Below, one piece after another: positions 1 through 52,500 of a stretch of DNA of 64,000 nt (its first letter is position 1; each line of letters starts with the position of its first letter). Made by a program: the position numbers and the translations under genes. Source of the stretch: a candidate division WOR-3 bacterium (lineage in GTDB: Bacteria > Hydrothermota > Tepidihabitantia > Tepidihabitantales > CAIPLT01); NCBI GenBank assembly GCA_039801505.1, contig JBDRUV010000002.1, positions 1-64,000 on the forward strand, given 5' to 3'. The notes under the pieces are model-generated. The model had not been told where the DNA came from. It saw only the letters and a list, made by a program, of their open reading frames with translations, and searched no databases.

Positions 1-3000
1 ATGAGTTTGAGTTAGAGGTTGTGGTTGGTGCGGTTGATGATTTGGATATTGCTGAGGATTATGTGGTTGGTAGTGGTGCGCATGGTACGACGGTGGTGAC
101 TGGGGCCTTTAGGGTGTATGCGACGGATGCGGCGAACAATCCAGATCCGGATGGTCCTGGTAATACGACCTTATATGGTATTACCTTCCTGGCGCAGGAT
201 TTGCGGGCTGGCGAGTTGGTGATTCCGGCGGCTAATATTTCGTTTGAGCCGGCGGTGATTGACAGTATTGCGCCTGGTCAGTATGTGAGTGTTGTGGTGA
301 GGGTGAATGTGCCTTATGGCACGTATGCTACGACATATGTTGGCAATGTGATTGCGACCAATAATACTGGGACGACTTCTGATGTGGTTGAGGTCCGGTT
401 GACGGTGGAGCCGTCCTACGACTATGATATTTCAGACAACACCGCTAACTTAGTAGAAAATTGGATGACCTTGTCTGGCTTACCAGGAACGATTCAACGA
501 GGTTATTTCGTCGAAGTTAACCCCAACAGTGCTGACCTGAATGTTGATCCGGATCCATTTGGCAATGCTGACCTAAACAATTTATATTGGAGTGTTGGAG
601 ATCTGTTGCATCAAACTAATCCATTAGCTTATATTCCTGCTGCGAATGTTGAATTGTTGGTTTCTAATCCTCATAGTTTACGCTCCGGAGCTTCACTAAA
701 CGTTGGATTAAGGGTGAGTATTCCAAATTATCAATATGCTGGCGTGTATACATCCTGGGTGCGAGTGATTGATGCTAATACAGGAGTTGGAGATTCCTTC
801 CAGTTAAAAGTAATTGTTGAGCCAGTTGAGGATATTGATATTGTGGAGAACTTGATAACTCAAACAGTCGGTGCGGGTGATACTTTGGTTTATCTTGGAA
901 CATTTACTCTAGTAAATCCTGATACAACCTGGAACCCTGATCCAGATGGACCCAGTAATATAGATCTTTATAATTTAATCTTCAGCAGTGAAAACTTAAT
1001 AGATATTACCAATCCCAATAGATACATAAGCGCGAATAATATCTATATTAGAGTAACTGGCCAATTCGGTCCAACACCAATTTCCTTGGCGAATGTTACT
1101 CAGCTTGCCTTGGGTGAATATGCAACCGTAGAGGTATGGGCATCGATTCCTCGCGGAACATACGCTTCAACATATCGTGGCAGCTTAACCGTTCTTGATG
1201 ATGATGGCTGGCCTTCAGATGCGATTGCTATTCAGATTAATGTTAATCCTTATTATGATTTGGATATTTCGGACAATGAGGCGGGTTTAGTTGGCAATGT
1301 GATGCGGTTATCTGGTGTGATGGGTAGTGTGCAGCGTGGGTATTTTAGGATGGTTAATCCGAACAGTGCGGAGCTTAATGTTGATCCGGATCAGTTTGGA
1401 AATGCTGATTTCAGTGGGTTTACGGTGTCGGTGGAGACATTGCGGTATGTGCCGTATGGTGGAGAGGAGGTTTTGTATTATATACCGCCGAGTGCGGTTA
1501 GTGTGGCGTTGCCAAGTGGTTTGGTATCTGGAGGTAGTTACAATGCGTTAGTGACTGTGAATGTGCCGTATAATACGTTTGCTGGGTTGTATCGGGGTGT
1601 GGTGACGGTGACTGGAGTTCCTGGTAGTCCTGGGACGCCTGCGGACAATTTTGTGTTAGAGGTTGTGGTTGGTCCGGTGGACTATTTGGATATAGATTCG
1701 GTTGCGGTGCATGGTGTTGGAGATCATGGTAGTATTGTTACGACGACGAGCTTTAGGGTGTATTCGCGAGATGGTCAGGGTTATGGTAATACGACGTTAT
1801 ATGGTGTGAGCTTTATTGTGAGTGATTTGGTGGCTGGTAATCGTGTGATTCCGGCGTCTAATGTTTCGGTGGTGCCGGCGTTGATTGAGTCGATACCGCC
1901 GGGTAGTTATCGGACAGCGGTGGTGCGTGTGAATGTGCCGTATGGGACGTATGCGACGACTTATAGTGGACTTGTTACTGCTATTAATAATACCGGAAGC
2001 ACATCAGACACGGTAAGAGTATTTGTCACGGTTAATCCGTCGTATGATTTAGATATCGCGGACAACATAGCAAACTTGGTTCGGAATACAATGACATTAC
2101 AGCTAATACCTAATACTCAAGCTAGTGGCCAGTTCTTATTGGTTAATCCTGATCGCAACGAAAACAATTATGACCCAGATCCCTTCGGCAATAGCAACTT
2201 AACCGGAATCCGATACCGCGTTAGTGAAGTACTCACTTCACCAGATGGTTATACCTTATCCGGTAGCGCGATTACATTTACCAATAATCCAACTAATTTA
2301 GCGTGGGGTGCTTCACAATATGTGACTGTTACTGTAAATATTGAACCGTCCCAGCCGTATGCGACTTACTATGGTACAGTTACTGTCTATGATAGTATCA
2401 ATGAAGCTACGGTTATATCTGATCAGTTTACGTTAGAAGTTATTGTCAGGCCACGAGATGCGTTCAGTTTAGCTGATACCATATATCTTACAGGACATGC
2501 GGGTGAATTTGCAACAACTGAGTTCTTTGTGAAAAACATCGGTAATAAGACCATCGATCGAATTGAGCTCTTCCCGATGACTGATTTGGTGAGTGCTGGT
2601 GGCGTGATGATCAGAAAAGAACGTATACAGTTTGCGCCACCGGTCATTATCGATTCCATCCAGATTGGTGATTCGGTTGAGGTTTCGCTCCGGGTCGAAA
2701 TACCACAAGGGGTGCTGCCAACTCGGTACACAGCTAAAGCTAAAGCAATGCAACAACACGGAGATCCTGCAAAGAACTTTGTGATTGTGCTTGATGTACA
2801 ATATCGGCCAGATATTGATGAAGGAATAGTCGTTAGCGAGAATCCGGTACTCAGCAATTATGTGGATATCGGATACATTGGTGAACCAGGTCAGCCAGTA
2901 AAACTTACAATCATGAACATGGCCGCAGAAATCGTCCATACGAAAGAACTGACCGTGGATCCCGGAACGAATTCTGGAGTTTATCGTTGGTACCTGAAAA

Positions 3001-3119
3001 ACGACAAGGAGCAGAATGTTGCGCCGGGTATCTATGTGATCATTACGCAATTTACCACGACTGAGAACGAACAACCGGTCGAAAAGGTCTTCCGGAAGAA
3101 GATCTTAATAGTAAGATAA
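1..3119 (+). CDS. Repeat-module secreted protein with C-terminal T9SS/FlgD-like domain (5' partial)
   Basis: The reading frame is open to the left window edge (first full codon at base 3), and the residues before the first possible GTG at 21 match the same place in later repeats, so the true start lies upstream. The visible ~1038 residues alternate two beta-rich modules of about 140 residues. One type begins near YDLDISDN and the other near VDDLDI; the order is B-A-B-A-B-A, with shared motifs such as NVPYGTYATTY and DPDPFGNAD. The last ~200 residues hold a conserved non-repeat domain and end in GIYVIITQFTTT...KKILIVR, which resembles FlgD-like/T9SS sorting domains. It is probably exported and surface-bound; the ligand is unknown. 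Bases 1-413 and about 1255-1970 use G/T-ending codons almost exclusively, while the modules between them do not (see findings). The repeat family itself is not one I can name. Confidence 0.8.
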   Translation, partial: EFELEVVVGAVDDLDIAEDYVVGSGAHGTTVVTGAFRVYATDAANNPDPDGPGNTTLYGITFLAQDLRAGELVIPAANISFEPAVIDSIAPGQYVSVVVRVNVPYGTYATTYVGNVIATNNTGTTSDVVEVRLTVEPSYDYDISDNTANLVENWMTLSGLPGTIQRGYFVEVNPNSADLNVDPDPFGNADLNNLYWSVGDLLHQTNPLAYIPAANVELLVSNPHSLRSGASLNVGLRVSIPNYQYAGVYTSWVRVIDANTGVGDSFQLKVIVEPVEDIDIVENLITQTVGAGDTLVYLGTFTLVNPDTTWNPDPDGPSNIDLYNLIFSSENLIDITNPNRYISANNIYIRVTGQFGPTPISLANVTQLALGEYATVEVWASIPRGTYASTYRGSLTVLDDDGWPSDAIAIQINVNPYYDLDISDNEAGLVGNVMRLSGVMGSVQRGYFRMVNPNSAELNVDPDQFGNADFSGFTVSVETLRYVPYGGEEVLYYIPPSAVSVALPSGLVSGGSYNALVTVNVPYNTFAGLYRGVVTVTGVPGSPGTPADNFVLEVVVGPVDYLDIDSVAVHGVGDHGSIVTTTSFRVYSRDGQGYGNTTLYGVSFIVSDLVAGNRVIPASNVSVVPALIESIPPGSYRTAVVRVNVPYGTYATTYSGLVTAINNTGSTSDTVRVFVTVNPSYDLDIADNIANLVRNTMTLQLIPNTQASGQFLLVNPDRNENNYDPDPFGNSNLTGIRYRVSEVLTSPDGYTLSGSAITFTNNPTNLAWGASQYVTVTVNIEPSQPYATYYGTVTVYDSINEATVISDQFTLEVIVRPRDAFSLADTIYLTGHAGEFATTEFFVKNIGNKTIDRIELFPMTDLVSAGGVMIRKERIQFAPPVIIDSIQIGDSVEVSLRVEIPQGVLPTRYTAKAKAMQQHGDPAKNFVIVLDVQYRPDIDEGIVVSENPVLSNYVDIGYIGEPGQPVKLTIMNMAAEIVHTKELTVDPGTNSGVYRWYLKNDKEQNVAPGIYVIITQFTTTENEQPVEKVFRKKILIVR

Positions 3120-3134
3120 CAAAGGAGAAAAAAT

Positions 3135-3191
3135 GGCGGTAGTAAGGACTTCTCAGCAAATTGGTTTAGCTCAGGGGTTCTTGCTACCGCC
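3135..3191 (+). promoter_or_regulatory. Inverted repeat just before the porV/ompA ribosome-binding site
   Basis: GGCGGTAG at 3135-3142 is the exact complement of CTACCGCC at 3184-3191. The arms extend to 12 bp with one G-U pair. The hairpin ends immediately before the GAGGAGG ribosome-binding site of the next gene, and an upstream AAAGGAG plus ATG at 3133 opens an in-frame leader. This could modulate translation or be an RNA-stability element; no function is shown. Confidence 0.45.
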
Positions 3192-3204
3192 AAGAGGAGG
3201 CACT

Positions 3205-4638
3205 ATGAATAAAATAATAAGCAATTTGGTATTGACAACAATGCTATTGGGCATTTCTGTAGCCTATGCTGGTACACCTGGTGAAGCGGTCGTCAGTCCG
3301 TTTGAAATTTCGTTTACAGCTCGCCAAACTGCGGTCGGTGAGGCTTTTACGGCATATGCTGACTGTAATTCCTTCTTATATAACCCGGGAACCCTTTCCC
3401 TGCTTGGTTGTGAGTATCTTACCTTTAGTCATAATCGATGGATTTTCGGGTCATCGCAATCATTTATAAGCGGTGGTATACCATTTAAGTGGGGATTTTT
3501 AGCTGGTGGTCTAATATATTTTAATCAGGGAGAAATCGATTTCTGCTCAAATTGGCAGAACCTGGGGGTTAAGAAGGGTAATTATGATTTAGGATTCGTT
3601 TTAGGATATGGTGGTCGATTCCATCGGTTTTTAGGTGCTGGAGCGAATATTAAAATTCTCTATCGTGATTGGTCGGGATATACGATGGCAGCATACGCAT
3701 TTGATCTTGGAGCCGTGGCTCCGGATATCGAATTGCCTTATGGGATTGGCAAACTTAATGCTGGGCTGGTGTTTCAAAATATTGGTCCCCAGGAACGACT
3801 TAGGTATCTAAACTTTAATCAACCGCTGACATCTAGGCTCGGTATATCAGTTCAATTTCCCTCATGGCGCATGTTAGATTTCGTGCTGCTAAGCGATTTA
3901 GCATATCCGATCTACGACGACGGGATAAGGGCAAACTTTGGTCTAGAGATTTGGGGATATGATATTATAGCCCTCCGTATCGGATACCGTCTAGGGTACG
4001 ATGTCCAGAATGCCAATTTAACCTTGGGGGCTGGCCTGAAGTATAAGAATTTCAATTTCGACTATGCGGTGGTTAACTATGGACCGTATTCCGGGCTTAC
4101 GCATCGTTTTACAATTTGTATGAACTTAAGCGAGATAAAACCTGTCGGTCCGTTCCGAACAGTTGACAGAAAATTAGACGAGCTTAATACCAAGACCGAT
4201 AAATTACAAGCCGATGTTACCGACCTTAAACTTTCAGTCGACGAGGTGAAATCGCTCATTAAGACATCATTAAAAACCACAGTTGATTTATTCTACATTA
4301 GGCACTTTCTTAATGTGCTCTTCCCGTTTGATTCTTATCAGATTCCGAAAACGGAATATTGGAAAATTGATGAAGCCATCCGGTTAATCAACGTCTATTA
4401 TCCAGATCAGACAATTATTCTTGAAGGTCATACCGATGTTGCCGGTTCTGATGCTTATAATATGAGGCTTTCCGAAAAACGGGCCCAGGCGGTTAAGGAT
4501 TATATGGTATCGAAAGGCATTCCGGCCGAGCGAATTATAATTTCACCGCAGGGTGAAAATAAACCACTTAATTATCAGACCGGCCCGGGTGTCAAAGGGA
4601 TGGAAAATCGCCGGGTCGTATTTGTATTAAGCGATTAA
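3205..4638 (+). CDS. PorV/UPF0164-like outer-membrane barrel fused to OmpA C-terminal domain
   Basis: The frame is open from ATG 3133, but I chose ATG 3205 because GAGGAGG lies 5 bases upstream and the protein then begins with a clean signal peptide (MNKIISNLVLTTMLLGISVAYA). Residues ~25-310 resemble PorV/PorQ or UPF0164 barrels: an ARQTAVGEAFTAYADC-type start where a functional-site loop and NPG motif follow, then alternating aromatic beta strands. A short coiled-coil-like stretch (~320-355, LDELNTKTDKLQADV) leads into an OmpA/MotB peptidoglycan-binding domain (~370-477) with LEGHTDVAGSDAYNMRLSEK and ENRRVVFV. In T9SS bacteria PorV shuttles cargo at the outer membrane. Here the location between two proteins with sorting-type C-termini supports a related job, with the OmpA domain tying it to the cell wall. 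The barrel family assignment is by resemblance only. Confidence 0.75.
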   Translation: MNKIISNLVLTTMLLGISVAYAGTPGEAVVSPFEISFTARQTAVGEAFTAYADCNSFLYNPGTLSLLGCEYLTFSHNRWIFGSSQSFISGGIPFKWGFLAGGLIYFNQGEIDFCSNWQNLGVKKGNYDLGFVLGYGGRFHRFLGAGANIKILYRDWSGYTMAAYAFDLGAVAPDIELPYGIGKLNAGLVFQNIGPQERLRYLNFNQPLTSRLGISVQFPSWRMLDFVLLSDLAYPIYDDGIRANFGLEIWGYDIIALRIGYRLGYDVQNANLTLGAGLKYKNFNFDYAVVNYGPYSGLTHRFTICMNLSEIKPVGPFRTVDRKLDELNTKTDKLQADVTDLKLSVDEVKSLIKTSLKTTVDLFYIRHFLNVLFPFDSYQIPKTEYWKIDEAIRLINVYYPDQTIILEGHTDVAGSDAYNMRLSEKRAQAVKDYMVSKGIPAERIIISPQGENKPLNYQTGPGVKGMENRRVVFVLSD

Positions 4639-4726: not shown

Positions 4727-7700
4727 ATGAGCAACAAATATATTGCAGTTGTAGCTACGATCATGGCACTATTGACGATCGGATACGCGGATACGCTTCT
4801 TTTGGAAAACTTCGACAGTGTGACACCACCAAATCTTCCTTCAGGTTGGGTTGTGATCGATGATAATAGTGATGGTAAAACCTGGGGTCTAAGCACATCG
4901 CATCCTCATACAGCGCCAAATTGTTTAAGATATGTTTATTCGCGGACAAATAGTGCTAATGACTGGGTTTTCACCCCCGGACTTACTTTAGAAGCTGGTG
5001 TTACTTACACGGTGGAATTCTATTATCGGGCTTCTTCACCATCGATGCCTGAGAAGATGAGGATATATTTAGCTACTGCGCAGGATCCATACGCGATTGT
5101 AGGTTCACCGGTGTGGGATAATAACAATATAACTAACACGATGTATCTCCAGGGCATGGCTGATTTCACAGTCGCTACTAGTGGTACCTACTACCTTGGT
5201 TTTCAATGCTATTCAGATCCCGACCGCTGGAACTTGAGAGTTGATGATATCGCTGTATATAAACAGGTACATGATGTTGGAATCGACACGATCTATTCTC
5301 CGCTACCTGGCGTTTATTCTGTTGGGGCGAGTTTTACACCACGATTCTTAGTGCGAAACTATGGCCAGAATACCGGCGGAGAAATAGTATATGCATACGC
5401 CAAGATAATCCGTTATCCGATTGTTGGCGATCCGGAAACGTTATATACTTATGGCGAGACATTACGAGTTGAAGTTTGCACCCCGGTAGAGGTTACCGGA
5501 CCTACTTGGTATTCGCAATATCCTTGTAATCACAAGTTCGTAGCGTGGACCGAAATTGCCGGTGGCGGCGATATGAATCCTGATAACGATAGTAAAGAAG
5601 TTGAATTTGCCATTGAGTACCGCGATGTTCGACCAATTGCTATTACTGTTCCGCCGAGTTATATGCAATGGTGTTCAGAATCAATTCCGACGGCAACGGT
5701 CAAGAACGAAGGACACCAGACTGAGTCATTCTGGGTTTATTTCAAGTCACTTGATGCCTCTAGTCAACAGGAGTATTTAGATTCGTTTTATGTTACAAAT
5801 CTCGGTGCCGGTCAGCAAACTACAGTTACTTTTGCTAAATGGCATTTCCCAGTGTGCCAGCATACGGCTGTGGTTTGGACAAAACTTGACGGCGATGAGA
5901 ACCCAACCAACGATACTATTACTCAGAGCTACACCGTATATTTAATTGACGCCGAAATTACCCAAGTTATTGCCCCTGATACAGTTATTGCTTGTCAGTA
6001 CTTCCCGGTGACGATAACGGTTCATAATAATGGGCCTCATTATACTCTGCAACCCGGCTGGGATATCGTGGTGGATATTTATGACGATCTAAATAATTTA
6101 GTTGCTGAAGAGATTGTATCTATCTCTGATCCGCTGCCCTACTGTTCAACGCTAACGGTCGCCCCAACACTTCATATCCCGAATCCTTGTATTCACCGAT
6201 TAGTAGTCACGGCCAATTATCCGGATGATCAAGCGCCTAACAATAATACTTATGAAAAGACAATCTATGCAGCAAGTATTGATGCGCATCCGGTGGAGAT
6301 AGTTGCGCCGGAGACGGTGCAGATGGGTGTTGATTTTGGTGTGGCGGTGAAGGTGCACAATAATAGTCAGCATTATGTGTTAGAGCCTGGTTGGCCGGTG
6401 TATTTGGGTGATGGAGTTCGGGTTGATACTGAGTATGTGAATGTTGCGCTTATGCCTTGCGAGACGGTTGAGGTGTACTTTACATGGAATTTTGGTGAGC
6501 CTTGTGAGCATACATTGACTGCGACGACTGACTATCCGGGTGATCAGAATGGAACTAATAATGCGATTCAGAAGTCGATTGTGGTTTATGCGTTAGATGT
6601 TGAGCCGGTCGCGATTAATGCGCCTAGTGTTGTGAAAGTTGGTGAGGCGTTTGATGTTACGGTGACGGTGCATAATAATGGTGAGCATTCGGTGGTGCCT
6701 GGTGGTTGGTATACTTATTTAGCGGTTGGTAATTTAGTGCGCGATTCGGTGCTTGTGACTACGGATTTAGGGTATTGTCAGAATGCTGATGTGACATTTG
6801 AGGATGTGGTGATATCTGAGCCTTGCGATCATGAGATTGTGGTTTGGACGGCGCTGGCTGGGGATCAGCGTCCGGAGAATGATACGACAAGTGTTAATAT
6901 TACGGTACAGTATTATGATTGGGCGGTAACTGAGATTTACAATGTGCCGGATACGGTGACTTATTGTGAGGACATTCATCCGTATATTGTGGTGACCAAT
7001 AATGATGTGCATGTTGCGCCGCGTTCGGCAACGGTGCATTATGCGTTATATCGTAATGATCTGTTAATTACTGATGGTTCGATAGTTACTGATGTGATTG
7101 GTCCTGGTGAGGCGGATACGGTTGACTTTACATATCATCCGGATGAGCCGTGCAATTGGCGGCTGGTGGCAACGGTTGAGGCGACTGATGATCAGAATGC
7201 CAACAACGACATGATGACTAAAGACTTCGTGGTAAGATACTATAATGTGGAAGTTATATCCATACTCAATGTGCCTGATACTGTAGATGTTTGTAACTGG
7301 ATCAATGCTCAAGTTGTAGTTCACAATAATGGTGTTCATGTGCCATCTCAAGAAGGCGATGTTGAATTTAGCATTTTAAGGTCTCATGATGGAATTAATT
7401 ACTATCAAGTCTATACTACATCTACACATGTAACTCTTAATTGGTGTGAGCCAGAAACTCTAACCTTCAGCTGGCATGCGGACAGTGCTTGTTGGCACAA
7501 AGTCGTGGTCTATGCTAACTTTACACCGGATCATAATGTATCCAATAACTCCTTAGAAGAGACATTTGTTGTCCGCTATCAAGATGTTGTTATTGCCAAT
7601 ATAACTGTTCCCGGAGATACCGTTATTAGTTGTAATTCCATTATTCCAGTTGTTGAAGTTATAAATAGCGGTGAACATAATGGGCCAGCTGAATGTACAG

Positions 7701-8674
7701 TTCGTATGAGAATCTGGCGATTTGCAACAAAACTTGATAGTCTCTGCCATATTTCACCTGATACTACTAAAGAGATTGTACTGTATGACACCTTTGTGGT
7801 AACAACAGTGGATCCTGGTGTCAACTTAGTGAACATGCCGCCTATCCATTTCTACCATGCCGATGTGTATTGGGTCGGGCATCATCATCGGATTTCAGCC
7901 ACGATCAGCACAGCCAATGATCAAGATCCTGTCAATAATAGTACCAGCAAGCAATTTATCGTGAAAGCCCACGACCATGATCTACAAGTGGATTATCTGG
8001 GATTGCTCTTTGGTAATCAGGTGATCCCGGATTCAATTATTACTGTTGGTATCTCTTATAACCCAATTTCTGTAATCTCGAACTCACCATTCGGTCCAAC
8101 AGCGAGTTTCCGAACCTGGTATAAGATTACACGCATGAAGGACAACGTTACAGTGTATTCGCGGTATCTTGATCGAACGCTCGCTGCCAGACAATATTCA
8201 TGTCTTTACTTCTATTCCGGTTGGGTACCAACCGATTCCGGTTACTACCGCTGCGAAACTTGGATTGTGGCTCGGCCTGGTGTTGACTTAATAGCTGAAA
8301 ACAGCTTCAGTTCCCGAGTCTATTATGCTCGTCTGACAACTAAACCAACCTTAATCAATGAAGGTAGTATTGCAAGTGAAAATTCCAGCTTGCCACAGGT
8401 CTTTGCTTTGGCGCCCAATTATCCCAACCCAGTATTTGGTATGACAACAATCAAGTGGCAGATTCCAGAGGCAACCCATGTAACCTTGGTGATTTACGAC
8501 GCTACAGGCCGCAAAGTGGCTACCCTAGTCAACGAGACTTATCAACCTGGGTACTATGAAACCATCTGGAACGGTACAGACGCCGAGGGTAGAAAAGTGT
8601 CAGCTGGTATCTACTTCTACGAAATGAAGGCCGGAAGCTACTTGGCACGTCGTAAGATGGTTGTATCTCGTTAA
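4727..8674 (+). CDS. Large secreted CARDB-repeat protein with T9SS type A-like sorting domain
   Basis: GAGGAGGT sits 6 bases before the ATG and the protein starts with a signal peptide ending near TIGYADT. Residues ~24-178 form a choice-of-anchor J / cleaved-adhesin type domain (LLLENFDSVTPPNLPSGW; WNLRVDDIAVY). Residues ~180-1110 hold about nine CARDB-like Ig repeats with recurring VTVHNNG, CxHxxV and DQNxxNN motifs; paired cysteines recur between repeats. A module with YSRYLDR and RPGVDLIAEN (~1110-1210) is shared with the giant protein at 44905. The end (~1228-1315; NYPNPVFGMTTI, IYDATGRKVATL, SAGIYFYEMKAG) is a FlgD-like/T9SS sorting domain. CARDB proteins are usually adhesive or structural exoproteins. 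About 6285-7199 (three repeats) switches sharply to G/T-ending codons. Confidence 0.88.
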   Translation: MSNKYIAVVATIMALLTIGYADTLLLENFDSVTPPNLPSGWVVIDDNSDGKTWGLSTSHPHTAPNCLRYVYSRTNSANDWVFTPGLTLEAGVTYTVEFYYRASSPSMPEKMRIYLATAQDPYAIVGSPVWDNNNITNTMYLQGMADFTVATSGTYYLGFQCYSDPDRWNLRVDDIAVYKQVHDVGIDTIYSPLPGVYSVGASFTPRFLVRNYGQNTGGEIVYAYAKIIRYPIVGDPETLYTYGETLRVEVCTPVEVTGPTWYSQYPCNHKFVAWTEIAGGGDMNPDNDSKEVEFAIEYRDVRPIAITVPPSYMQWCSESIPTATVKNEGHQTESFWVYFKSLDASSQQEYLDSFYVTNLGAGQQTTVTFAKWHFPVCQHTAVVWTKLDGDENPTNDTITQSYTVYLIDAEITQVIAPDTVIACQYFPVTITVHNNGPHYTLQPGWDIVVDIYDDLNNLVAEEIVSISDPLPYCSTLTVAPTLHIPNPCIHRLVVTANYPDDQAPNNNTYEKTIYAASIDAHPVEIVAPETVQMGVDFGVAVKVHNNSQHYVLEPGWPVYLGDGVRVDTEYVNVALMPCETVEVYFTWNFGEPCEHTLTATTDYPGDQNGTNNAIQKSIVVYALDVEPVAINAPSVVKVGEAFDVTVTVHNNGEHSVVPGGWYTYLAVGNLVRDSVLVTTDLGYCQNADVTFEDVVISEPCDHEIVVWTALAGDQRPENDTTSVNITVQYYDWAVTEIYNVPDTVTYCEDIHPYIVVTNNDVHVAPRSATVHYALYRNDLLITDGSIVTDVIGPGEADTVDFTYHPDEPCNWRLVATVEATDDQNANNDMMTKDFVVRYYNVEVISILNVPDTVDVCNWINAQVVVHNNGVHVPSQEGDVEFSILRSHDGINYYQVYTTSTHVTLNWCEPETLTFSWHADSACWHKVVVYANFTPDHNVSNNSLEETFVVRYQDVVIANITVPGDTVISCNSIIPVVEVINSGEHNGPAECTVRMRIWRFATKLDSLCHISPDTTKEIVLYDTFVVTTVDPGVNLVNMPPIHFYHADVYWVGHHHRISATISTANDQDPVNNSTSKQFIVKAHDHDLQVDYLGLLFGNQVIPDSIITVGISYNPISVISNSPFGPTASFRTWYKITRMKDNVTVYSRYLDRTLAARQYSCLYFYSGWVPTDSGYYRCETWIVARPGVDLIAENSFSSRVYYARLTTKPTLINEGSIASENSSLPQVFALAPNYPNPVFGMTTIKWQIPEATHVTLVIYDATGRKVATLVNETYQPGYYETIWNGTDAEGRKVSAGIYFYEMKAGSYLARRKMVVSR

Positions 8675-14396: not shown

Positions 14397-15659
14397 ATGG
14401 ACAAATTAGTTATTTATGGTGGCCAGCGATTAAAAGGAACAATTAAAGCGTCTCGTGCTAAGAATGCTACTTTACCAATAATGGCAGCGGCACTTCTCAC
14501 TACAAAACCGGTAAGAATTCGAAACGTCCCTAAGGTTCAGGATGTGAAGACAATGGCAGAGTTGTTGAGTTCATTAGGAGCAAGGGTTAATTTTACTGGA
14601 AATGATGTAATTATCGAAGCCCAAAACGATCTTTCTTTAGAAGCACCTTATGATATTGTTCGGAAAATGCGTGCTTCATACTACGTATTGGGGCCACTTT
14701 TGGCACGGTTCCGTAAAGCCAAAGTGTATTTACCGGGTGGTTGTGCAATTGGTCCACGTCCTGTGGATTTACATATTAAAGGGCTAGAAGCACTAGGTGC
14801 TCATATCAAAATTCGTCACGGTTATATAGCCGCCCAAGCAAAATTACTTAAAGGACAAGAAATATTATTAGAGGGAAAGGCTGGCCCAAGTGTTGGTGCG
14901 ACTGCTAATGTGATGATGGCCGCCACCCTAGCTAAGGGAATTACAAAGATCATCGGTGCCGCCCTAGAACCGGAAATAGTCGACTTAGCGAATTTTCTAA
15001 ATTCTTTAGGGGCTAAAATTAAAGGTCATGGAACTTCAACAATTACTGTAGAGGGTGTTAAAGAATTACACGGAGGCGAGTGGATACCAATTCCTGACCG
15101 AATAGAGGTGGGGACCTATTTGTGTTCAGCGATTGCAACCCGTGGCGAAATTACAATTGAAGATTGTGAACCTAAACACTTAGATACGGTACTTTTAATT
15201 TTTAAGCAGCTTGGATGCGAATTAACCGTCGGGAGCAATACAATAAAATTAAAAGCACCAGCGCGTCCTAAAGCGATTTCAGTGGTTACTGCTCCTTATC
15301 CGGGTTTTCCAACTGACTTGCAAGCCCAGATGATGGCCGTTTTGGCAACAGCTTCTGGGGTTAGTTATATTACTGAGAATGTTTTTAAAGCCAGATTTCT
15401 TCATGCGCTAGAACTTAATCGGATGGGCGCAGATATCAAAATTGAAGACAACGTAGCTATTATAACAGGGGTTGAACGACTCAGTGGTGCAAAAGTAATG
15501 GCGTCAGATTTGCGAGCCTCAGCTGCACTAGTGATAGCTGGTCTATGTGCTGAAGATAAAACAGAAATCTCTCGAATTTACCATTTAGATCGAGGATACG
15601 AGGCATTGGAACAAAAGTTAACTGAATTGGGTGCACGGCTTGAACGTATAAAATCGTAA
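14397..15659 (+). CDS. murA: UDP-N-acetylglucosamine 1-carboxyvinyltransferase
   Basis: MurA transfers enolpyruvate from PEP to UDP-GlcNAc, the first committed step of peptidoglycan synthesis. The 420-residue length is standard. It has the KNATLPIMAAAL start (the family consensus is KNA), the active-site loop LPGGCAIGPRPVDLH with catalytic Cys at residue 116 (so likely fosfomycin sensitive), and PGFPTDLQAQMMA and DLRASAALVIAGL near the end. No Shine-Dalgarno sequence is visible; the gene starts 27 bases after tRNA-Ser and may share its transcript. ispG follows with its start within 10 bases. Confidence 0.97.
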   Translation: MDKLVIYGGQRLKGTIKASRAKNATLPIMAAALLTTKPVRIRNVPKVQDVKTMAELLSSLGARVNFTGNDVIIEAQNDLSLEAPYDIVRKMRASYYVLGPLLARFRKAKVYLPGGCAIGPRPVDLHIKGLEALGAHIKIRHGYIAAQAKLLKGQEILLEGKAGPSVGATANVMMAATLAKGITKIIGAALEPEIVDLANFLNSLGAKIKGHGTSTITVEGVKELHGGEWIPIPDRIEVGTYLCSAIATRGEITIEDCEPKHLDTVLLIFKQLGCELTVGSNTIKLKAPARPKAISVVTAPYPGFPTDLQAQMMAVLATASGVSYITENVFKARFLHALELNRMGADIKIEDNVAIITGVERLSGAKVMASDLRASAALVIAGLCAEDKTEISRIYHLDRGYEALEQKLTELGARLERIKS

Positions 15660-15668
15660 TTGGTCTTT

Positions 15669-16712
15669 ATGTCAAAATTTTCAGTATTTGTTGGTAACGT
15701 TCAAATTGGAGGGGGTGCGCCAGTTCGTATTCAATCGATGGCTAAGTGTCCAACCGAAAAAATTTCGCAGCTTTTAAGGGAGATTAGAACTTTAGAAAAG
15801 GCCGGCTGTGAAATCGTTAGAATAGCTATACCAAGTTCTGGGGCGCTTGAAAGTATACCGTTGCTTAAAACAAAAATTTCGATACCAATTGTTGCCGATA
15901 TTCATTTTGATTATCGGCTAGCAATCGGGGCAATTAAAAAGGGTGCAGATAAAATCAGAATTAATCCCGGTAATATAGGTAGTAAATGGAAAGTCGAAGA
16001 AGTTATTTCAGTGGCAAAAGATTTTGGAGTGCCAATACGGATTGGCGTAAACGCAGGTTCTTTACCCAAGAAAATTCTTAATAAGTATCGTCAACCGACG
16101 ACACAAGCACTGATTTTTAGTTTAGAGGAACATTTGGAAATATTTGAGAAGAAAAATTTTTATAATTTAGTTCTTTCAGCAAAAACGGCCAACTTTCAAG
16201 AAACAATTGAAGTTTATGAAAATTTAGCCCAAAAATATCCGTATCCGCTACATATTGGCGTTACAGAATCAGGACTACCGCTTCAAGGCACAATACGCTC
16301 AATTTCGGCATTAGCGGTTTTACTGAATAAAGGGATTGGCGATACGATACGGATATCGTTAACTGGCCCTGCAGTTTTAGAAGTCACCGTAGCTAAAGAA
16401 CTCTTGCAAAACCTCGGATTAAGAAAATTTGGTCCTCAGCTTATTTCCTGTCCTGTATGCGGGCGCTGTAAAGTAAATTTAGTAAAAATAGCCAGGCAGA
16501 TTCAAAGAAAACTTCAAGCAGTAAAAGATCCGATAAAAATTGCTGTGATGGGGTGTGTCGTAAATGGTCCTGGTGAAGCACGGTTTGCTGATTATGGAAT
16601 TGCGTGCGGAAAAAATGCCGGAGTAATTTTTAGAAGGGGGCGAGTGATCAAAAAATGTTCTGAAAAAGAGTTAGTACCAGAATTACTTACAATTATAAAA
16701 AAAGATTTATGA
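15669..16712 (+). CDS. ispG: 4-hydroxy-3-methylbut-2-en-1-yl diphosphate synthase (GcpE)
   Basis: IspG reduces MEcPP to HMBPP in the MEP isoprenoid pathway using a 4Fe-4S cluster. Cluster cysteines are in CPVCGRC and in MGCVVNGPGEA near the C-terminus. The N-terminus VFVGNVQIGGGAPVRIQSMA and VADIHFDYRLA are classic. The length of 347 residues fits the short bacterial form without the plant/Chlamydia insert. I prefer ATG 15669 over TTG 15660, because family members begin right before VxVGxVxIGG. It overlaps the next gene by 4 bases (ATGA), which indicates translational coupling. Confidence 0.96.
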   Translation: MSKFSVFVGNVQIGGGAPVRIQSMAKCPTEKISQLLREIRTLEKAGCEIVRIAIPSSGALESIPLLKTKISIPIVADIHFDYRLAIGAIKKGADKIRINPGNIGSKWKVEEVISVAKDFGVPIRIGVNAGSLPKKILNKYRQPTTQALIFSLEEHLEIFEKKNFYNLVLSAKTANFQETIEVYENLAQKYPYPLHIGVTESGLPLQGTIRSISALAVLLNKGIGDTIRISLTGPAVLEVTVAKELLQNLGLRKFGPQLISCPVCGRCKVNLVKIARQIQRKLQAVKDPIKIAVMGCVVNGPGEARFADYGIACGKNAGVIFRRGRVIKKCSEKELVPELLTIIKKDL

Positions 16713-44904: not shown

Positions 44905-47900
44905 ATGACCACTTATCGTATTAAAAAACTTATCGGGGTGTGTATATTATTAGGCGCAATGTTTTTTAGCACCCCACTAATGAGCCAGGCTATTACTGAT
45001 TACAGATTTTTCTCCTCAATGGGTACTTTTACGCCTCTAACTGGTGCTATTGTACCACCATTGTCTGGCGGTTCCTTAGACGATGGTTATTATAATAATA
45101 TTCCCATCGGTTTTACCTTTAATTATTTAGGGGTCGACTATACCATGCTTTCGGCCACGACTAACGGTTGTGTTGTTTTAGGCCAAACTCTGACTTCCTC
45201 ACTTATCACTAATAATCTTACCTCGGGCACCCCAAGACCGATCTTAGCACCACTGTGGGACGATTTAGATCAAGAAGCGTTTGGCACATTTTCTTATAAG
45301 ACCGAAGGCGCCGCGCCGAATCGGGTATTTACAGCTGAATGGTTAAATTTTGCTTGGAATTATACAGCAACCGAGCCGGTAATTTCCTTTCAATTAAAAC
45401 TTTATGAGGCTAATGGCAAGATTGAATTTATCTATCGCCAAGAACCTGGTGCGGTAGTAAATGGTAGCGCTTCCATTGGCATTACTGCAGTGGGTACCGG
45501 ACCGGGTAATTTTCTCTCGTTAGATGGCACCGGACCGGCTCCAAATGTTAGCAGTGAAATTGAGACCAATACTATCAATACCAAGCCAGCAACTGGTCAA
45601 ATATATGCTTTTGTTATTATTCCTTATCCGAGAATTTCTCATACGCCACTGACAAGTGATACTACAACCGGGCCACGATTAGTGCGGGCTATTATCACCA
45701 GCGCTATCGGTATCGCACCACCCCCTAACGGGCCTCGGCTGTATTATCGAACTTCGCCCGGCGCCTATACCAGTGTCCCAATGAGTAATGTGGGTGGCGA
45801 TACTTGGCAGGCTACAATCCCTGGGCAACCTCAAGGCACATTTGTAGAATACTATATTGCGGCTCAAGATACATCTAGTCCACCATTAGTTACAACGGCA
45901 CCACCTGGGGGGAGTGGTGCTAATCCTCCGGGCACGACTCCACCACCGGTGCCTTATTCTTATTATGTGCAACGGACAATTTCGGGCATAAAATATATCG
46001 TAAGTGGTGTTACTGCCCAGGACACTTATCCTTCATTTACGGCAGCAATTGAGGACTTAAATTCCAGCTTAGTTGCTCCGGGTGGGGTCATATTTAATGT
46101 GCCCGGTGATCAGACATTCATTGAGATTTTACCACCCATTACCGCCACCGGTGATCCAAATTCTCCGATTATCTTTCAAAAGATTGGAACTCGAGCTAAT
46201 CCCGTAGTAAGAAGAACCGATGCTGGGACGATTAGTACTTCTGTGCTTGGTGGCCAAGGTGATGCGGTAATTACCATTGATGGTGGCGACTATATAACCT
46301 TTGACGGCATTAATGTTGAAGCCACAGATCCCGGAATTGAGTATGGCTATTATTTGCGCAAACGTAACTCCGACGATGGTTGTAAAAATGTTACGATAAA
46401 GAATGCTAAGATCACCATGAACAAGGGCACAAGTCAGTACGTTGTTGGGATCTATGCTTCAAACAATGATTTGACATCATCACCAAGTTCGGCGACTGGT
46501 ATTACAATAACTTCTGATGGCGGCCGAACTGAAAATCTTAAGCTCTTGGGCAATGATATTCAAAATGTCTTTACGGGCATAATTTTACGAGGAAATTCTA
46601 CTTATCCAGATTTATATCCAATAGTTGGCGATTCTGGTATGGGTAACTCGATTACCAACTATGCCGGTAATGTTGCAGCCACAGCATATGGTGTCTATAT
46701 GATTTATCAGATTATGCCTAAGGTCAGCTATAATTATATTTCAAATACCGCTAATGGTGGTTCGAATTTCACCTCGATCGGTTATGGAATTATGAATTCG
46801 ACAACAACTAATGGTGGCGGTATAATTACTAATAATGTAATCGATATCACAACCAACACTGGTCAGCTTTCGGGTATTTATTCCACAACTGGTGGCACCA
46901 ATCCTTTGGTGCATGCCAATAACTCCTTAAAACTTTCGGCCACGGGTGGAAGTGGCGTGGTATATTTCCAATATGTTAGCGGCACTTATCCTTCAATAAC
47001 TATTACTAATAATGTCTTCATGACTAACGGTATTACCTCAACCGGCAGTTGTTATTTAATTTACAACTCGACGCCTACTCAGAATGTTTTAGTGAGTAAT
47101 AATGTCACAAGCGGGATATTTAACCGCACAGCAGCCTCTGGAACATTTTATGGATACTATAATTATGGCTCGCCGGCAGGTGGCACTGAATATCTTTTAA
47201 ACAACAACTTTTCCAATATTAATTTAGCCGGTAGTTCAGCTTTCTATGGGATATACTCTAATACTGCAACAGCTCATAATCGGGTTGCTTCGGGTAATGT
47301 GATTTCTAACATCTACGGTGGTTCTGGGACCATGTATGGAATTTCTTGTGTTTCGACAACTTCTAATCAAGTTTATAATAACATAATTGACAGTATAATT
47401 GGGGGCGGCACAGTTTATGGCTTAAATGTTACTGGCACGAATCCTTCGGTTTATAATAACATTGTGAGAAAATTGAAGACTACTGGAACAACTCTTTATG
47501 GAATCTATCTCGGTGGTTCTGGAACAACCAATTGTTATAAAAACCAAATTTATACCTTAACAAGCACGACCACAAGCACACCGGCTGTTGACGGAATCTA
47601 TGTGGGTACTGGTCTTACAGTTAACATTTATAATAACTTTATTTCCGACTTGAACGCTCCATCAGGGAATTCCGCAACTGCGATTGCAGGGATCTATGTC
47701 GCAGTTGGTACCAGCGGTGCCGTTGTGAATCTTTACTATAATAGTATCTATATTAACGCTACCAGCACTGGTGCCACTTTTGGAACCATTGGCGTTTATG
47801 CTTCAACAACACCAACAGTTGATATGCGTAATAATGTAATTGTTAACACATCGACACCTAACGGCACCGGTTTAACTGTGGCTTATCGGCGAAGTTCAAC

Positions 47901-50900
47901 AACCCTTACTACTTATGCCAGCACTTCGAATAATAACTGTTTTTACGCCGGCACACCATCAGCATCACGGTTAATCTTTTATGATGGCACTAACGCTGAC
48001 CAAACTTTGGCCCAATACAAAGCTCGGGTAGCACCGAGAGATTGGTATTCAGTTACTGAAGCCGTGGACTTTGTAAGCGCAACGGATCTCCATATTAATC
48101 CGACAACACCCACAAGACTTGAATCTGGTGCTCAGCCGATTTCCTGGATTACTACGGATATCGACGGGCAACCACGAGTTGGTTCAACTGAGATTAATAC
48201 CAATGTGATGTCTGATATTGGTGCTGATGAATTTAGTGGAACCCCAATTGACGAGTTTGGCCCGGTAATTACTTATACGCCACTACCATATACTAGTTCG
48301 ACCGGTAATCGAACCCTTACTGCCACCATTATCGATTTAATTTCTGGTGTTTCTGTAGAACCCGGGCGTCGACCGACTCTTTATTACAATAAAAACCGTG
48401 GGCCATGGTTCTGTGATTCGCTTATAGCACCGCCCTGGATATTTACAATAAATGTTGCAAATTTAGGCGGCGTGACTGTTGGCGATACGGTGTTCTATTA
48501 TGTTAGCGCCTATGACTCTTCAGGCAATCAGTCAGTAAATCCGATTACTGCTCCAGCCATACCAAACTTCTATATCATTACCCAGGCACCGCTTTCTGGT
48601 AACTATACCGTAGGGCTAGCGATGTTTAACGAACTAACCGGACGGAATATTTATTTTGAAAAAACAGTCCGAAAAGTAATTCGGGAAGTTCGAGAGCCGA
48701 TAGTCAAATCAACAACATCTTTAACTGGAGCCAAAAACGAACCAATTTCCGATGATGTAGAACTTCCGATAGAGAGTAAATTAGTAGAAGCTGAAGAAGA
48801 AATCTGGATTCCGATGGAAAATGGTAAACCATACCTTGGTGAACTATATGTCAAGAAATCAGAAAATCCAGAAATAAGATTTCCTGAAGGTATTGAGGGC
48901 GTTTACGCCACGATAACTGCGGCAATTGCTGATCTAAATTTACGTGGTGTGAACGGGCCTACAAATTTCCTCTTAGTTGATTCATCTTATCCTAATGAAA
49001 CTTATCCCTTAAGCATCGATGTGCTAAACGAATATAAACCGACAGCGGTAAACAAGGTAACAATTAAACCCGCTAGTGGCGTTGTAGCTACTATTTCTGG
49101 TTCAGCTGCTGGTACGCCGATCTTTCGGATAATTTCCAGTTACATTACAATCGATGGTTCTAACTCCGGGGGCACCGATCGCAGCTTAACTATCCAAAAT
49201 ACTAACGCATCTTCACCTCAAGTAATTGCAATTGCGCCAGCAACAACCACACCTACTATTGGGGTTACCATAAAGAACTGTATTATAATTAATGGCAGCA
49301 ATACAGCCAGTGCCGTTGTGGTTGGAAATCCTGGCTACTTTAATGATATTACTATCCAGAATAATAGCATTCAGTTGGCTTATATTGGTATCTACGTGCG
49401 AGCCGATCCTCCAACTGGTAGCAACGGGAGTGCTGTGCGAATTATTGGTAATGATCTTAATACCTCCGGCACCAATGCTATTCGATTAGTTGGAGTATAT
49501 TTCCAGGGAATTCAGCGTTCGCAAGTTGCTAATAACAACATCGGCAACTTTACGACCCAAGATGCTTCAAACATCACCGGAATTTGGTTTGCGTCAGATA
49601 CCCGGACCAGTTCTATTGTGAATAATACGATCGGCCCGATTGTCTCCACTACCGGCGCGCCTCGTGGAATTGCCATTTCTTCAGGCCTGGCTAACACTAA
49701 TATTATTATCTCTAAGAATACAATTACTGGAATTTCTACTAGCTACAGCAGTGCGCCTTACGGAATCTATATTTTCTCAACCACCACAGGAGTCACAGTG
49801 GAAAAGAATAATGTTACTGGAATTTATAATACCAATACCGGTGGCTACGGAGCACGGGGTATTCATGTTAATACTGGTATTTCGGCAAGTAATATTCTTA
49901 TTAAGAACAATTTTGTCTCAGACGTCAAAGCTACATCTGACGTGTCAACAACATACTGGGGCATTGGCATCGGTATTGAAGGAGCTACAGGCAGTGTTAA
50001 GGTCTATAATAATAGTGTTTATTTGTCAGGCACAATGGCCGGCTATAGTGCAGCAACTGTTCATGCCGCATTTGCGGTGATTACTTCTACGGCCACCGAT
50101 TTAGATGTTCGAAATAATATCTTTGTAAACACTTTTGATAATACGAACAGCACAACCGATAAAAGCTACGCCATCAACAGTCAAGCACCGGCCACAGTAT
50201 TCACAAGCATTAATTACAACGATTACTATGTAGGCGGCCCAGCTGGCATTTTAGGTTATCTTAATAGCGACCGACTGACACTCGACGCCTGGCGGTTGGC
50301 AACTGGTCAGGACTTGAATTCAATTTCGGCTGATCCATTATTTACTAGCACTACTGATTTGCATATTCCTCGTAATGTTATTTCGCCGATAAACCGCAAA
50401 GCAACCCCAATTGCTTTAGTGTCCGATGATTTTGATGACGAGACGCGACATCCGACTTATCCGGATATTGGTGCCGACGAATACACCCCCTATCCACCTC
50501 AAGAGTTTACCCTGGTAAGTCCTCTTAATGGTGCGATAACTCAACCATTAGTTGGTCAACTGATCTGGCGTAAAGCCGAGTTGGCTGAATTTTATAATGT
50601 TTATTTAAGTATTGATTCACCACCTTCAACATTGGTTAGCACCCAAACAGATACTGTTTATCAATATAATTTGTCGCCGAACCAAACATACTATTGGCAG
50701 GTGGTTGCCTTGAACGATACTCAACAAGTTACCGAAGGTGCAACTTATTCTGAAATTTGGAAATTCCGGACCGAAATTTGGGATGTAGGTGCAGTTTCCA
50801 TTATTCGTCCCGGACCGATTGGATTTGCAGGTAATGTGATTATTCCCAAGGTGAAAGTGAAGAATTTTGGCGATGTTCCTCAGAGTTTTACTGTTACTAT

Positions 50901-52500
50901 GCACATTGGTTCAATTTATACTGACACCAAAACAGTTAATAATCTCTTACCTCAGGAGACTTTGATGGTTGATTTTGAACCTTGGACTGCAGTGTTGGGG
51001 ACTTACAATCTTTTGGCTTACACAACATTAATGCAAGATAATAACCCGGCTAACGACACCGTGTGTGGCATTACTGAAATCCAACCTCCAGCACATGATG
51101 TTGGCGTACTTGAGATTTTATCGCCAACCGCCGAGACAACTCTTGCCGGAACCAACATTGTACCACAAGTGCGAATAAAGAATTTTGGTGCCTTCACGGA
51201 GACTTTTAACGTGCGTCTTACAATAGGTGATATATATAATGAGATAGTTTATATTAGTAACTTTGAATCTGGGGCTGAAAGTACGATTACTTTCCCATCC
51301 TGGATTAGTTTGCCTTGTAATTATACCCTAAAATGCTCAACCGAGCTCGATATTGATCAACTACCAGAAAATGATGTAGCATACAAAACACTTACTGTGC
51401 AGTATTATGATGTTGGTGTAACCGGAATCTTAATTCCTCAAGATACGGTATTTGTCAATACTGAATATTGGCCGGCATTTATAGCAACAAATAATAGCGT
51501 TCATGTCTCGGGTCCTATTCCAGTGACTATTAAATTAACCATTCGTCGTTATCCAGTAAAGATGATTTCATACTGTTCGATTGGACGAAGTGAAAATCCT
51601 GAGCTAGTTAAAGAATGTGAATGGTCTACGGAAATACCGGTTGGTACATGTACGATAATTTCTCCAGAAGACTGGAAGCCGATTTTATGGGATATCTGTT
51701 GGATAAGCGAACCAACCTATCATGAGGTAATCGTCGAGATTACAGCTCCCAACGATATGGAGCCTACCAACAATAGATTATCAAAACCAGTGACAGTTCG
51801 ATGTGATGTTGCTGATTTACAGATGAGTTGGACAGGTTTACTCATAGGATATACGCCGCAATATTCAGAGACCCTTTCATTTAGAGCCTATAATGTTGCA
51901 TCTGTTGTTACAAGTGGACCTTATGAATTATCATCAATACCATTCCGAGCTAAAATTCGAATTTTCCGAGAGAGCGACAACGCGTTAGTCTACTCAAGGT
52001 ATTTAGATCGAGAAATTTTACGAATGTCATATCTCTGTTTGCCATTCCAATCCAGCTTTACACCATCAACGCCGGGTTGGTATAGAATTAAATCATGGCT
52101 TGAAACTCGGCCGGGAATCGATTTGATTGCCGAAAACAATGTTTGTGAACGGCGGTATTACTTTATGGATCTGCTGCCAACAGGTACATCAAGCAATATT
52201 ACTCAAGCTGCTCAGAGCAGCGCTAGCGAGAAGATAAACACCTTATCGTTATTAATTGAACCTAATCCAATGGCGCATCGGGCAAAGATTTCGTGGCAAT
52301 TGCCGATTGCGGGAGATGTAGCTATTAGAATTTATGATGTTAACGGACGACTAGTTAGCACGGTATTTAACGGTACTTGTGGTATTGGTCTACACGAAAT
52401 TAATTGGGTTCCAACTAATCAGATATCATATGGCATTTACTTCTGCGAACTAACTACCGAAAATCAGCGAATACGCCAGAAACTTGTAATAACGAAATAA
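44905..52500 (+). CDS. Giant secreted beta-helix/CARDB protein with T9SS-like sorting domain
   Basis: The 2531-residue protein starts with a signal peptide (LIGVCILLGAMFFSTPLMSQA) behind a near-perfect Shine-Dalgarno sequence. In order it shows a jelly-roll domain (~35-225), an Ig/Fn3-like domain (~240-320), a right-handed beta-helix rich in N-N-x-I and YNN turns (~355-1110), an Ig-like domain (~1115-1220), a charged linker (~1245-1310, KTVRKVIREVREPIVK), a second beta-helix (~1315-1855), an Fn3-like domain (QLIWRKAELAEFYNVYLS), three to four CARDB repeats (~1955-2330), the YSRYLDR/RPGIDLIAEN module also found in the protein at 4727, and the sorting domain (~2450-2531; SYGIYFCELTTEN). Beta-helix exoproteins are often adhesins or polysaccharide-degrading; no catalytic residues were recognised. 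Confidence 0.9.
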   Translation: MTTYRIKKLIGVCILLGAMFFSTPLMSQAITDYRFFSSMGTFTPLTGAIVPPLSGGSLDDGYYNNIPIGFTFNYLGVDYTMLSATTNGCVVLGQTLTSSLITNNLTSGTPRPILAPLWDDLDQEAFGTFSYKTEGAAPNRVFTAEWLNFAWNYTATEPVISFQLKLYEANGKIEFIYRQEPGAVVNGSASIGITAVGTGPGNFLSLDGTGPAPNVSSEIETNTINTKPATGQIYAFVIIPYPRISHTPLTSDTTTGPRLVRAIITSAIGIAPPPNGPRLYYRTSPGAYTSVPMSNVGGDTWQATIPGQPQGTFVEYYIAAQDTSSPPLVTTAPPGGSGANPPGTTPPPVPYSYYVQRTISGIKYIVSGVTAQDTYPSFTAAIEDLNSSLVAPGGVIFNVPGDQTFIEILPPITATGDPNSPIIFQKIGTRANPVVRRTDAGTISTSVLGGQGDAVITIDGGDYITFDGINVEATDPGIEYGYYLRKRNSDDGCKNVTIKNAKITMNKGTSQYVVGIYASNNDLTSSPSSATGITITSDGGRTENLKLLGNDIQNVFTGIILRGNSTYPDLYPIVGDSGMGNSITNYAGNVAATAYGVYMIYQIMPKVSYNYISNTANGGSNFTSIGYGIMNSTTTNGGGIITNNVIDITTNTGQLSGIYSTTGGTNPLVHANNSLKLSATGGSGVVYFQYVSGTYPSITITNNVFMTNGITSTGSCYLIYNSTPTQNVLVSNNVTSGIFNRTAASGTFYGYYNYGSPAGGTEYLLNNNFSNINLAGSSAFYGIYSNTATAHNRVASGNVISNIYGGSGTMYGISCVSTTSNQVYNNIIDSIIGGGTVYGLNVTGTNPSVYNNIVRKLKTTGTTLYGIYLGGSGTTNCYKNQIYTLTSTTTSTPAVDGIYVGTGLTVNIYNNFISDLNAPSGNSATAIAGIYVAVGTSGAVVNLYYNSIYINATSTGATFGTIGVYASTTPTVDMRNNVIVNTSTPNGTGLTVAYRRSSTTLTTYASTSNNNCFYAGTPSASRLIFYDGTNADQTLAQYKARVAPRDWYSVTEAVDFVSATDLHINPTTPTRLESGAQPISWITTDIDGQPRVGSTEINTNVMSDIGADEFSGTPIDEFGPVITYTPLPYTSSTGNRTLTATIIDLISGVSVEPGRRPTLYYNKNRGPWFCDSLIAPPWIFTINVANLGGVTVGDTVFYYVSAYDSSGNQSVNPITAPAIPNFYIITQAPLSGNYTVGLAMFNELTGRNIYFEKTVRKVIREVREPIVKSTTSLTGAKNEPISDDVELPIESKLVEAEEEIWIPMENGKPYLGELYVKKSENPEIRFPEGIEGVYATITAAIADLNLRGVNGPTNFLLVDSSYPNETYPLSIDVLNEYKPTAVNKVTIKPASGVVATISGSAAGTPIFRIISSYITIDGSNSGGTDRSLTIQNTNASSPQVIAIAPATTTPTIGVTIKNCIIINGSNTASAVVVGNPGYFNDITIQNNSIQLAYIGIYVRADPPTGSNGSAVRIIGNDLNTSGTNAIRLVGVYFQGIQRSQVANNNIGNFTTQDASNITGIWFASDTRTSSIVNNTIGPIVSTTGAPRGIAISSGLANTNIIISKNTITGISTSYSSAPYGIYIFSTTTGVTVEKNNVTGIYNTNTGGYGARGIHVNTGISASNILIKNNFVSDVKATSDVSTTYWGIGIGIEGATGSVKVYNNSVYLSGTMAGYSAATVHAAFAVITSTATDLDVRNNIFVNTFDNTNSTTDKSYAINSQAPATVFTSINYNDYYVGGPAGILGYLNSDRLTLDAWRLATGQDLNSISADPLFTSTTDLHIPRNVISPINRKATPIALVSDDFDDETRHPTYPDIGADEYTPYPPQEFTLVSPLNGAITQPLVGQLIWRKAELAEFYNVYLSIDSPPSTLVSTQTDTVYQYNLSPNQTYYWQVVALNDTQQVTEGATYSEIWKFRTEIWDVGAVSIIRPGPIGFAGNVIIPKVKVKNFGDVPQSFTVTMHIGSIYTDTKTVNNLLPQETLMVDFEPWTAVLGTYNLLAYTTLMQDNNPANDTVCGITEIQPPAHDVGVLEILSPTAETTLAGTNIVPQVRIKNFGAFTETFNVRLTIGDIYNEIVYISNFESGAESTITFPSWISLPCNYTLKCSTELDIDQLPENDVAYKTLTVQYYDVGVTGILIPQDTVFVNTEYWPAFIATNNSVHVSGPIPVTIKLTIRRYPVKMISYCSIGRSENPELVKECEWSTEIPVGTCTIISPEDWKPILWDICWISEPTYHEVIVEITAPNDMEPTNNRLSKPVTVRCDVADLQMSWTGLLIGYTPQYSETLSFRAYNVASVVTSGPYELSSIPFRAKIRIFRESDNALVYSRYLDREILRMSYLCLPFQSSFTPSTPGWYRIKSWLETRPGIDLIAENNVCERRYYFMDLLPTGTSSNITQAAQSSASEKINTLSLLIEPNPMAHRAKISWQLPIAGDVAIRIYDVNGRLVSTVFNGTCGIGLHEINWVPTNQISYGIYFCELTTENQRIRQKLVITK

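What the first reader, a model, noticed from the sequence alone, without database searches (positions are those of the whole stretch)
1..1975. Alternating codon-composition blocks along protein repeats
In the first secreted protein, bases 1-413 and about 1255-1970 have third codon positions that are nearly all G or T. The modules at about 414-1254 and after 1975 have ordinary mixed codons. The switch points are sharp, and the blocks coincide with whole A-B module pairs of about 840 bases. This suggests that repeat units have been exchanged with a source of different codon usage, such as a paralog or an outside donor, rather than gradual drift. An assembly join between related repeats is the main alternative.
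Basis: partly seen in the sequence, partly recalled or inferred. Interest (0 to 1): 0.68.

Follow-up and report, generated by a model that had tools for sequence, protein, structure and literature searches.

The report
G/T-only codon blocks inside genes
Two neighbouring secreted-protein genes of a WOR-3-type bacterium contain sharply bounded blocks whose codons nearly all end in G or T; the same kind of block recurs in related genomes and, across distant phyla, in the elongation factor Tu gene, often exactly where DNA is kept identical between gene copies, which points to an unrecognised strand-biased recombination footprint.

Summary
Third positions are 89% G/T at bases 3-413 and ~1191-1991, against 53% in the rest of gene 1 (p=9e-35).

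It is not a recent import. The sister species G001 has the gene-2 block with the same edges within about one codon. Flanking synonymous sites are saturated, yet inside the block G and T keep exchanging while A and C stay excluded. The composition is held in place.

Related genomes carry such blocks in secreted-protein cassettes. Where copies exist (own genome C5/C36; G028), the block edge is the edge of near-identity between genes that differ upstream.

A scan of 84,980 species found the same dialect in EF-Tu genes of WOR-3, Acidimicrobiia, Hydrogenophilus, Rhodothermus and deltaproteobacteria (GT3 up to 0.99, neighbours mostly ordinary). In one genome two tuf copies are 100% identical between unrelated flanks.

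Best reading (0.42): a strand-polar footprint of recurrent recombination or gene conversion; the chemical cause is unproven. Against it: the gene-2 block is single-copy today. Transcription-linked mutation and selection on codons remain rivals. Assembly artefact is rejected; simple donor import is unlikely.

The parts
3..3119 (+). Gene 1: secreted modular protein (tandem A-B modules, NPCBM-associated/NEW3-type domains), 5' end cut off by the contig start
3..413 (+). G/T third-position block 1 (GT3 ~0.88)
414..1190 (+). ordinary-codon module pair between the two blocks (the module pair itself runs to ~1254)
1191..1991 (+). G/T third-position block 2 (GT3 ~0.87-0.89); strongest from ~1218
1992..3119 (+). 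ordinary-codon C-terminal part; third positions locally G-poor (0-0.07) at about 2100-2280
3133..4638 (+). OmpA-domain protein between the two block-bearing genes, ordinary composition
4727..8674 (+). Gene 2: secreted protein with cleaved-adhesin, CARDB and marginal type IX C-terminal sorting domains
6275..7198 (+). G/T third-position block 3 (GT3 0.887), conserved with the same edges in sister species G001, absent in G002

Best explanation
The blocks are in-place footprints of recurrent, strand-polar homologous recombination (gene conversion) acting on particular coding segments: exchangeable modules and C-terminal cassettes of secreted proteins here, duplicated tuf genes elsewhere. Shown: sharp edges; maintenance of the G/T restriction over species divergence; coincidence of block edge and identity edge in multi-copy cases; pressure reaching first codon positions. 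Inferred: that recombination itself is the driver, and that the bases are biased because the coding strand is usually the 3'-ended single strand that invades the homologous copy. On that strand C-to-T and A-to-G damage, or better tolerance of G.T than A.C mismatches in heteroduplex, or selection for the GT-rich sequence that RecA prefers (from memory, not tested), would each leave mainly G and T at free sites. These three sub-mechanisms are not separated here.
For: Gene 2, G000 vs G001: edges equal to about one codon; four-fold sites 33-34% identical outside, 58% inside, most inside differences G<->T, and among sites where both have G or T 30% differ inside vs 39% outside. First codon position 0.61-0.63 G/T in the block vs 0.505 in block-less G002, flanks equal. 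G028: three genes share a 97.8-98.4% identical cassette whose start is the block start. Own genome: C36-right and C36-left rise from ~0.4-0.6 to ~1.0 identity with C5 where GT3 rises to ~0.9. Scaffold gaps and contig ends cluster at blocks, and in G043 the same G/T-rich stretch ends three separate contigs, as expected of multi-copy DNA. tuf: same dialect in several phyla; two tuf copies 100% identical over CDS + 18 nt between unrelated flanks in OM1 bin76; most G/T-type tuf genes fall to low GT3 in the last ~20 codons, near the end of the homology; tuf is the textbook gene of concerted evolution, reported in 29 orders (PMC6053082).
Against: The gene-2 block has no second copy in G000 or G001, and G031 shows one tuf only, so present-day duplication is not required. 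E. coli and Salmonella tuf pairs convert yet are not known for G/T-only codons (own knowledge). Break-centred polarity (A/C-rich 3' side) is clear in tuf but weak in secreted proteins (pooled GT3 0.49 over 40 codons downstream vs 0.57 upstream). The 98.5% identical C3/C10 tail is not G/T-rich, so shared DNA alone does not suffice. Identity next to contig ends may partly be assembly k-mer overlap.
Confidence: 0.42

Rival explanations
1. Transcription-associated mutation: in the most transcribed genes (tuf, surface proteins, phage structural genes) the exposed coding strand suffers C>T and A>G changes, giving the G+T excess on coding strands known from other systems.
For: Right strand and right bases; tuf, surface proteins and a phage contig (C11: GC skew 0.2-0.57, G/T-rich third positions) are plausible high-transcription genes.
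Against: Edges lie inside genes; the S10 operon directly downstream of tuf is ordinary (GT3 0.41-0.5); fusA directly upstream in L177 is ordinary (0.51); block edges coincide with identity edges; GT3 in most tuf genes falls in the last ~20 codons although transcription must continue.
Confidence: 0.18
2. Selection on codons or mRNA (decoding speed at wobble codons, mRNA structure or stability, secretion) acting on certain domains.
For: One shared codon set in all blocks, with TTA and ATA partly spared; edges near domain borders.
Against: First-position shift and TTG 91% for Leu in GC-rich genomes point to the DNA level; ribosomal genes and fusA do not share the set; homologous domains in G002 do well without it.
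Confidence: 0.2
3. Replacement of modules by DNA from a paralog, phage or other organism with G/T-rich codon usage.
For: Blocks match module units; the gene-2 block region is more diverged from G002 (47% aa) than its flanks (61-63%); phage contig C11 has a similar though weaker dialect.
Against: Composition maintained in place over saturating divergence with fixed edges; no donor homolog in the genome or in viral contigs; the tuf case has one dialect in several phyla and is followed across related genera. An old origin by replacement followed by maintenance remains possible.
Confidence: 0.12
4. Assembly join between related repeats.
For: Position 1 is a contig start and many blocks sit at contig ends or gaps.
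Against: Frame and domain order are preserved; same edges in independently assembled species; blocks also occur inside uninterrupted contigs (gene 2; G031 and G033 tuf).
Confidence: 0.02

Closest known systems
Concerted evolution of duplicate tuf genes by gene conversion (PMC6053082; Salmonella model PMC5485169)
   Same: Copies kept identical between unrelated flanks; tuf is the main gene found here outside secreted proteins
   Different: The terms 'third codon' and 'skew' do not occur in PMC6053082 and no G/T bias was found described; the window's own blocks are single-copy secreted-protein modules
Transcription-associated strand asymmetry (G+T excess on coding strands, known from vertebrates; own knowledge, related paper PMC2927911)
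   Same: Excess of G and T on the coding strand
   Different: Far stronger (up to 99% of third positions), with sharp edges inside genes and ordinary neighbours in the same operon
GC-biased gene conversion
   Same: Proposed link between recombination and base composition
   Different: G and T rise, C and A fall; in the actinobacterial locus L177 GC3 is lower in tuf (0.60) than in fusA (0.80)
Type IX secreted proteins with shared C-terminal domains
   Same: Gene 2 and the C5 peptidase are of this general type (CTD marginal in gene 2; C25 peptidase in C5)
   Different: Nothing in that family predicts third-position G/T blocks; most such proteins in the window lack them

Membership tests
Concerted evolution by gene conversion | Copies within a genome near-identical while flanks are unrelated | tested here: met
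   tuf in OM1 bin76; G028 cassettes; own genome C5/C36. These are related loci, not the window blocks themselves
Concerted evolution by gene conversion | A second copy of the window's own block in the same genome | tested here: not met
   Gene-2 block DNA found once in G000 and once in G001 apart from a 42-nt internal match; no second locus for gene 1 beyond its own 5' part
GC-biased gene conversion | Raises G and C together | tested here: not met
   G and T rise, A and C fall; GC3 lower in G/T-type tuf than in fusA of L177
Transcription-associated mutational asymmetry | G+T excess on the coding strand | tested here: met
Transcription-associated mutational asymmetry | Extends over the whole transcription unit | tested here: not met
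   Sharp mid-gene edges; ordinary S10 genes downstream of tuf. Transcript ends themselves are not known
Horizontally imported segment with foreign codon usage | Composition decays towards that of the host after import | tested here: not met
   G/T restriction maintained between two species with saturated flanks
Type IX secreted protein | C-terminal sorting domain (gene 2) | tested here: inconclusive
   Por_Secre_tail 27.1 bits (cut-off 27), CHU_C 27.5 (cut-off 27), FlgD_ig 36.2 (cut-off 27): marginal and overlapping; gene 1 has no such hit

The most novel reading that the evidence does not exclude
Bacteria of several phyla share an unrecognised strand-polar recombination process that drives free sites of repeatedly converted coding segments to G and T on the invading (coding) strand, so that sub-genic G/T-only blocks mark recombination tracts and their polarity.
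Probability: 0.33. Interest if true: 0.9.

Novelty: new variant of a known kind. Interest (0 to 1): 0.72.

Why it matters
If such blocks are recombination footprints, conversion tracts and their polarity could be read from a single genome sequence, a new substitution bias would be established, and codon-usage tests for foreign DNA would be known to misfire inside genes. It would also help explain why assemblies of these bacteria break at secreted-protein and tuf genes. Even without the mechanism, a tuf gene with 99% G/T-ending codons beside an ordinary fusA is hard to reconcile with standard models of codon usage.

Tried and rejected
Outside or phage donor: no relative of either window block in viral contigs and no G/T-rich paralog in the own genome. 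General translational selection on highly expressed genes: ribosomal genes and fusA near G/T-type tuf are ordinary in WOR-3 and Acidimicrobiia; in Hydrogenophilus the ribosomal genes are mildly raised (0.60-0.68). Antisense-gene constraint: TTA, an antisense stop in the matching frame, is retained at 26-55% of Leu codons in secreted-protein blocks; long antisense ORFs over tuf in GC-rich genomes are probably a by-product. Low-complexity and GC-rich hits of the pattern scans (own C8 repeat; G024, G029, G034, G051 and others) were set aside. Tuf-motif hits L174 and L187 are chance (GT3 0.53 and 0.58). A break-centred model (A/C-rich 3' side) held for tuf but only weakly for secreted proteins, so it is not claimed in general. 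Papers: no description of this pattern was found in the held library, which is not proof of absence.

Full report
WHAT IS THERE. ORF 3..3119(+) is open at its 5' end because the window starts at the start of contig C2 of a 57-contig, 1.94 Mb genome. Its third positions are almost all G or T (K) at 3-413 and ~1191-1991, and mixed elsewhere. Among degenerate codons the K share is 0.887 in the blocks and 0.532 outside, p=9e-35; shuffled codon orders never come close. The neighbouring gene 4727..8674 carries a third block at ~6275-7198 (0.887 vs 0.553). No other listed ORF in the window shows anything similar, the giant secreted protein 44905..52500 included. Pfam finds an NPCBM-associated NEW3 domain in gene 1; in gene 2 it finds cleaved-adhesin, CARDB and a marginal type IX C-terminal sorting domain.

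NOT RECENT, NOT AN ARTEFACT. The same-genus genome G001 has gene 2 (78% aa identity) with the block at the same edges to within about one codon; the more distant G002 lacks the block. Outside the block, four-fold degenerate sites of G000 and G001 are 33-34% identical, about saturation. Inside, 58% are identical and most differences are G<->T; among sites where both species have G or T, 30% differ inside and 39% outside. So comparable time has passed, G and T have exchanged freely, and A and C have been kept out. That is what in-place maintenance predicts and what a decaying import does not. In G001 the gene-1 homolog also enters a G/T block right after a GWPS|D motif, as in the window.

DNA-LEVEL PRESSURE. 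Codon use in the blocks is extreme (GAG 98%, CAG 100%, GCG/CCG/ACG/GGT), with TTA and ATA partly spared. The set is shared by blocks of seven genomes and by tuf genes. First codon positions are also shifted to G/T in the gene-2 block (0.61-0.63 vs 0.505 in G002, flanks equal); at columns where G000 and G001 agree and G002 differs the values are 0.65 vs 0.45. Choice among synonymous codons alone does not predict that.

BLOCKS AND SHARED DNA. A scan for long runs of G/T third positions gave hits in 23 of 61 genomes examined, though several are low-complexity. The genuine ones lie mostly in secreted proteins, often at contig ends or beside 100-N scaffold gaps. In G028 three genes share a 97.8-98.4% identical C-terminal cassette; for the two whose upstream parts are visible (C3, C16) these are dissimilar, and the cassette's edge is the block edge. 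In the window's own genome, C36-right and C36-left step from ~0.4-0.6 to ~1.0 DNA identity with C5 where GT3 steps to ~0.9; part of that shared end may be assembly k-mer overlap.

TUF. In G031 (one contig) the run of G/T codons is in the EF-Tu gene: GT3 ~0.92 for ~357 codons, then A/C-rich for the last ~25, while the S10 ribosomal operon just downstream is ordinary. Relatives in genus g18, and G033, G053 and G055, share it; the window's own family does not. A motif scan of 84,980 species gave 23 loci, two of which (L174, L187) are chance. The rest are tuf genes from candidate division WOR-3, Acidimicrobiia and other actinobacteria, Rhodothermus, Hydrogenophilus, Desulfobacterales and other deltaproteobacteria, and OM1 bin76, with GT3 from 0.73 to 0.99. 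In OM1 bin76 two tuf copies are 100% identical over the coding sequence plus 18 nt, with unrelated flanks. Five of the seven G/T-type tuf genes checked in the window's class sit at contig ends or gaps. In the Acidimicrobiia group, with GC-rich genomes, Leu is 91% TTG. tuf is the classic case of lasting concerted evolution by gene conversion, reported in 29 orders (PMC6053082), and its conversion has been measured in Salmonella (PMC5485169).

INTERPRETATION. The factor common to the multi-copy cases is repeated recombination of a coding segment, and the base pattern is that of one strand. The most economical account is a strand-polar conversion footprint: the coding strand is usually the invading 3' strand, and deamination there, or better tolerance of G.T than A.C mismatches, or selection for RecA-preferred GT-rich DNA, excludes A and C. 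The link to recombination rests on correlation, and the choice among the three causes is inference. The gene-2 block, single-copy in both species, is the main difficulty; recombination between strains or a lost second copy would be needed. Transcription-associated mutation has the right strand and bases but does not explain mid-gene edges or ordinary downstream genes. Codon-level selection does not explain the identity edges or the first-position shift.

VERDICT. The exchange idea is right that such blocks can be exchange units, at least in related loci, but wrong about a differently biased source. What stands is a robust, unexpected and apparently widespread compositional phenomenon with a plausible but unproven mechanism.

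Noticed in passing
L044 and L132 (own genome contig C11): A Mu-like phage contig (terminase, portal, head genes) whose genes are G/T-rich at third positions along most of its length, with GC skew 0.2-0.57 on one strand; similar but weaker dialect to the blocks.
   Followed up: partly
L131 ~15180-16550 (own genome contig C8, 45178-46551): About 1.4 kb of 81% GC tandem repeat near a contig end in a ~42% GC genome, open on both strands for over 450 codons; possibly contamination.
   Followed up: no
L199:1242-4322 (own genome C2:105242-108322): Another secreted-protein gene on the same contig as the window in which GT3 climbs gradually from ~0.5 to ~0.9 towards the 3' end and drops in the last five codons.
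   Followed up: partly
L196:5187-6662 (an Acidimicrobiaceae genome, G066:C11): A non-tuf gene with GT3 of 0.8-1.0 over ~240 codons, declining to ~0.2 at the 3' end, next to ordinary genes.
   Followed up: partly
L176, L181, L183, L191 (actinobacterial tuf loci): Antisense ORFs as long as or longer than tuf overlie the G/T-type tuf genes and could be mis-annotated as genes.
   Followed up: no
window 1 and L037:1-749 (own genome C4): The 5' end of gene 1, with ordinary codons, appears to lie at the end of contig C4, so C4 and C2 are probably neighbours separated by an unresolved repeat.
   Followed up: partly
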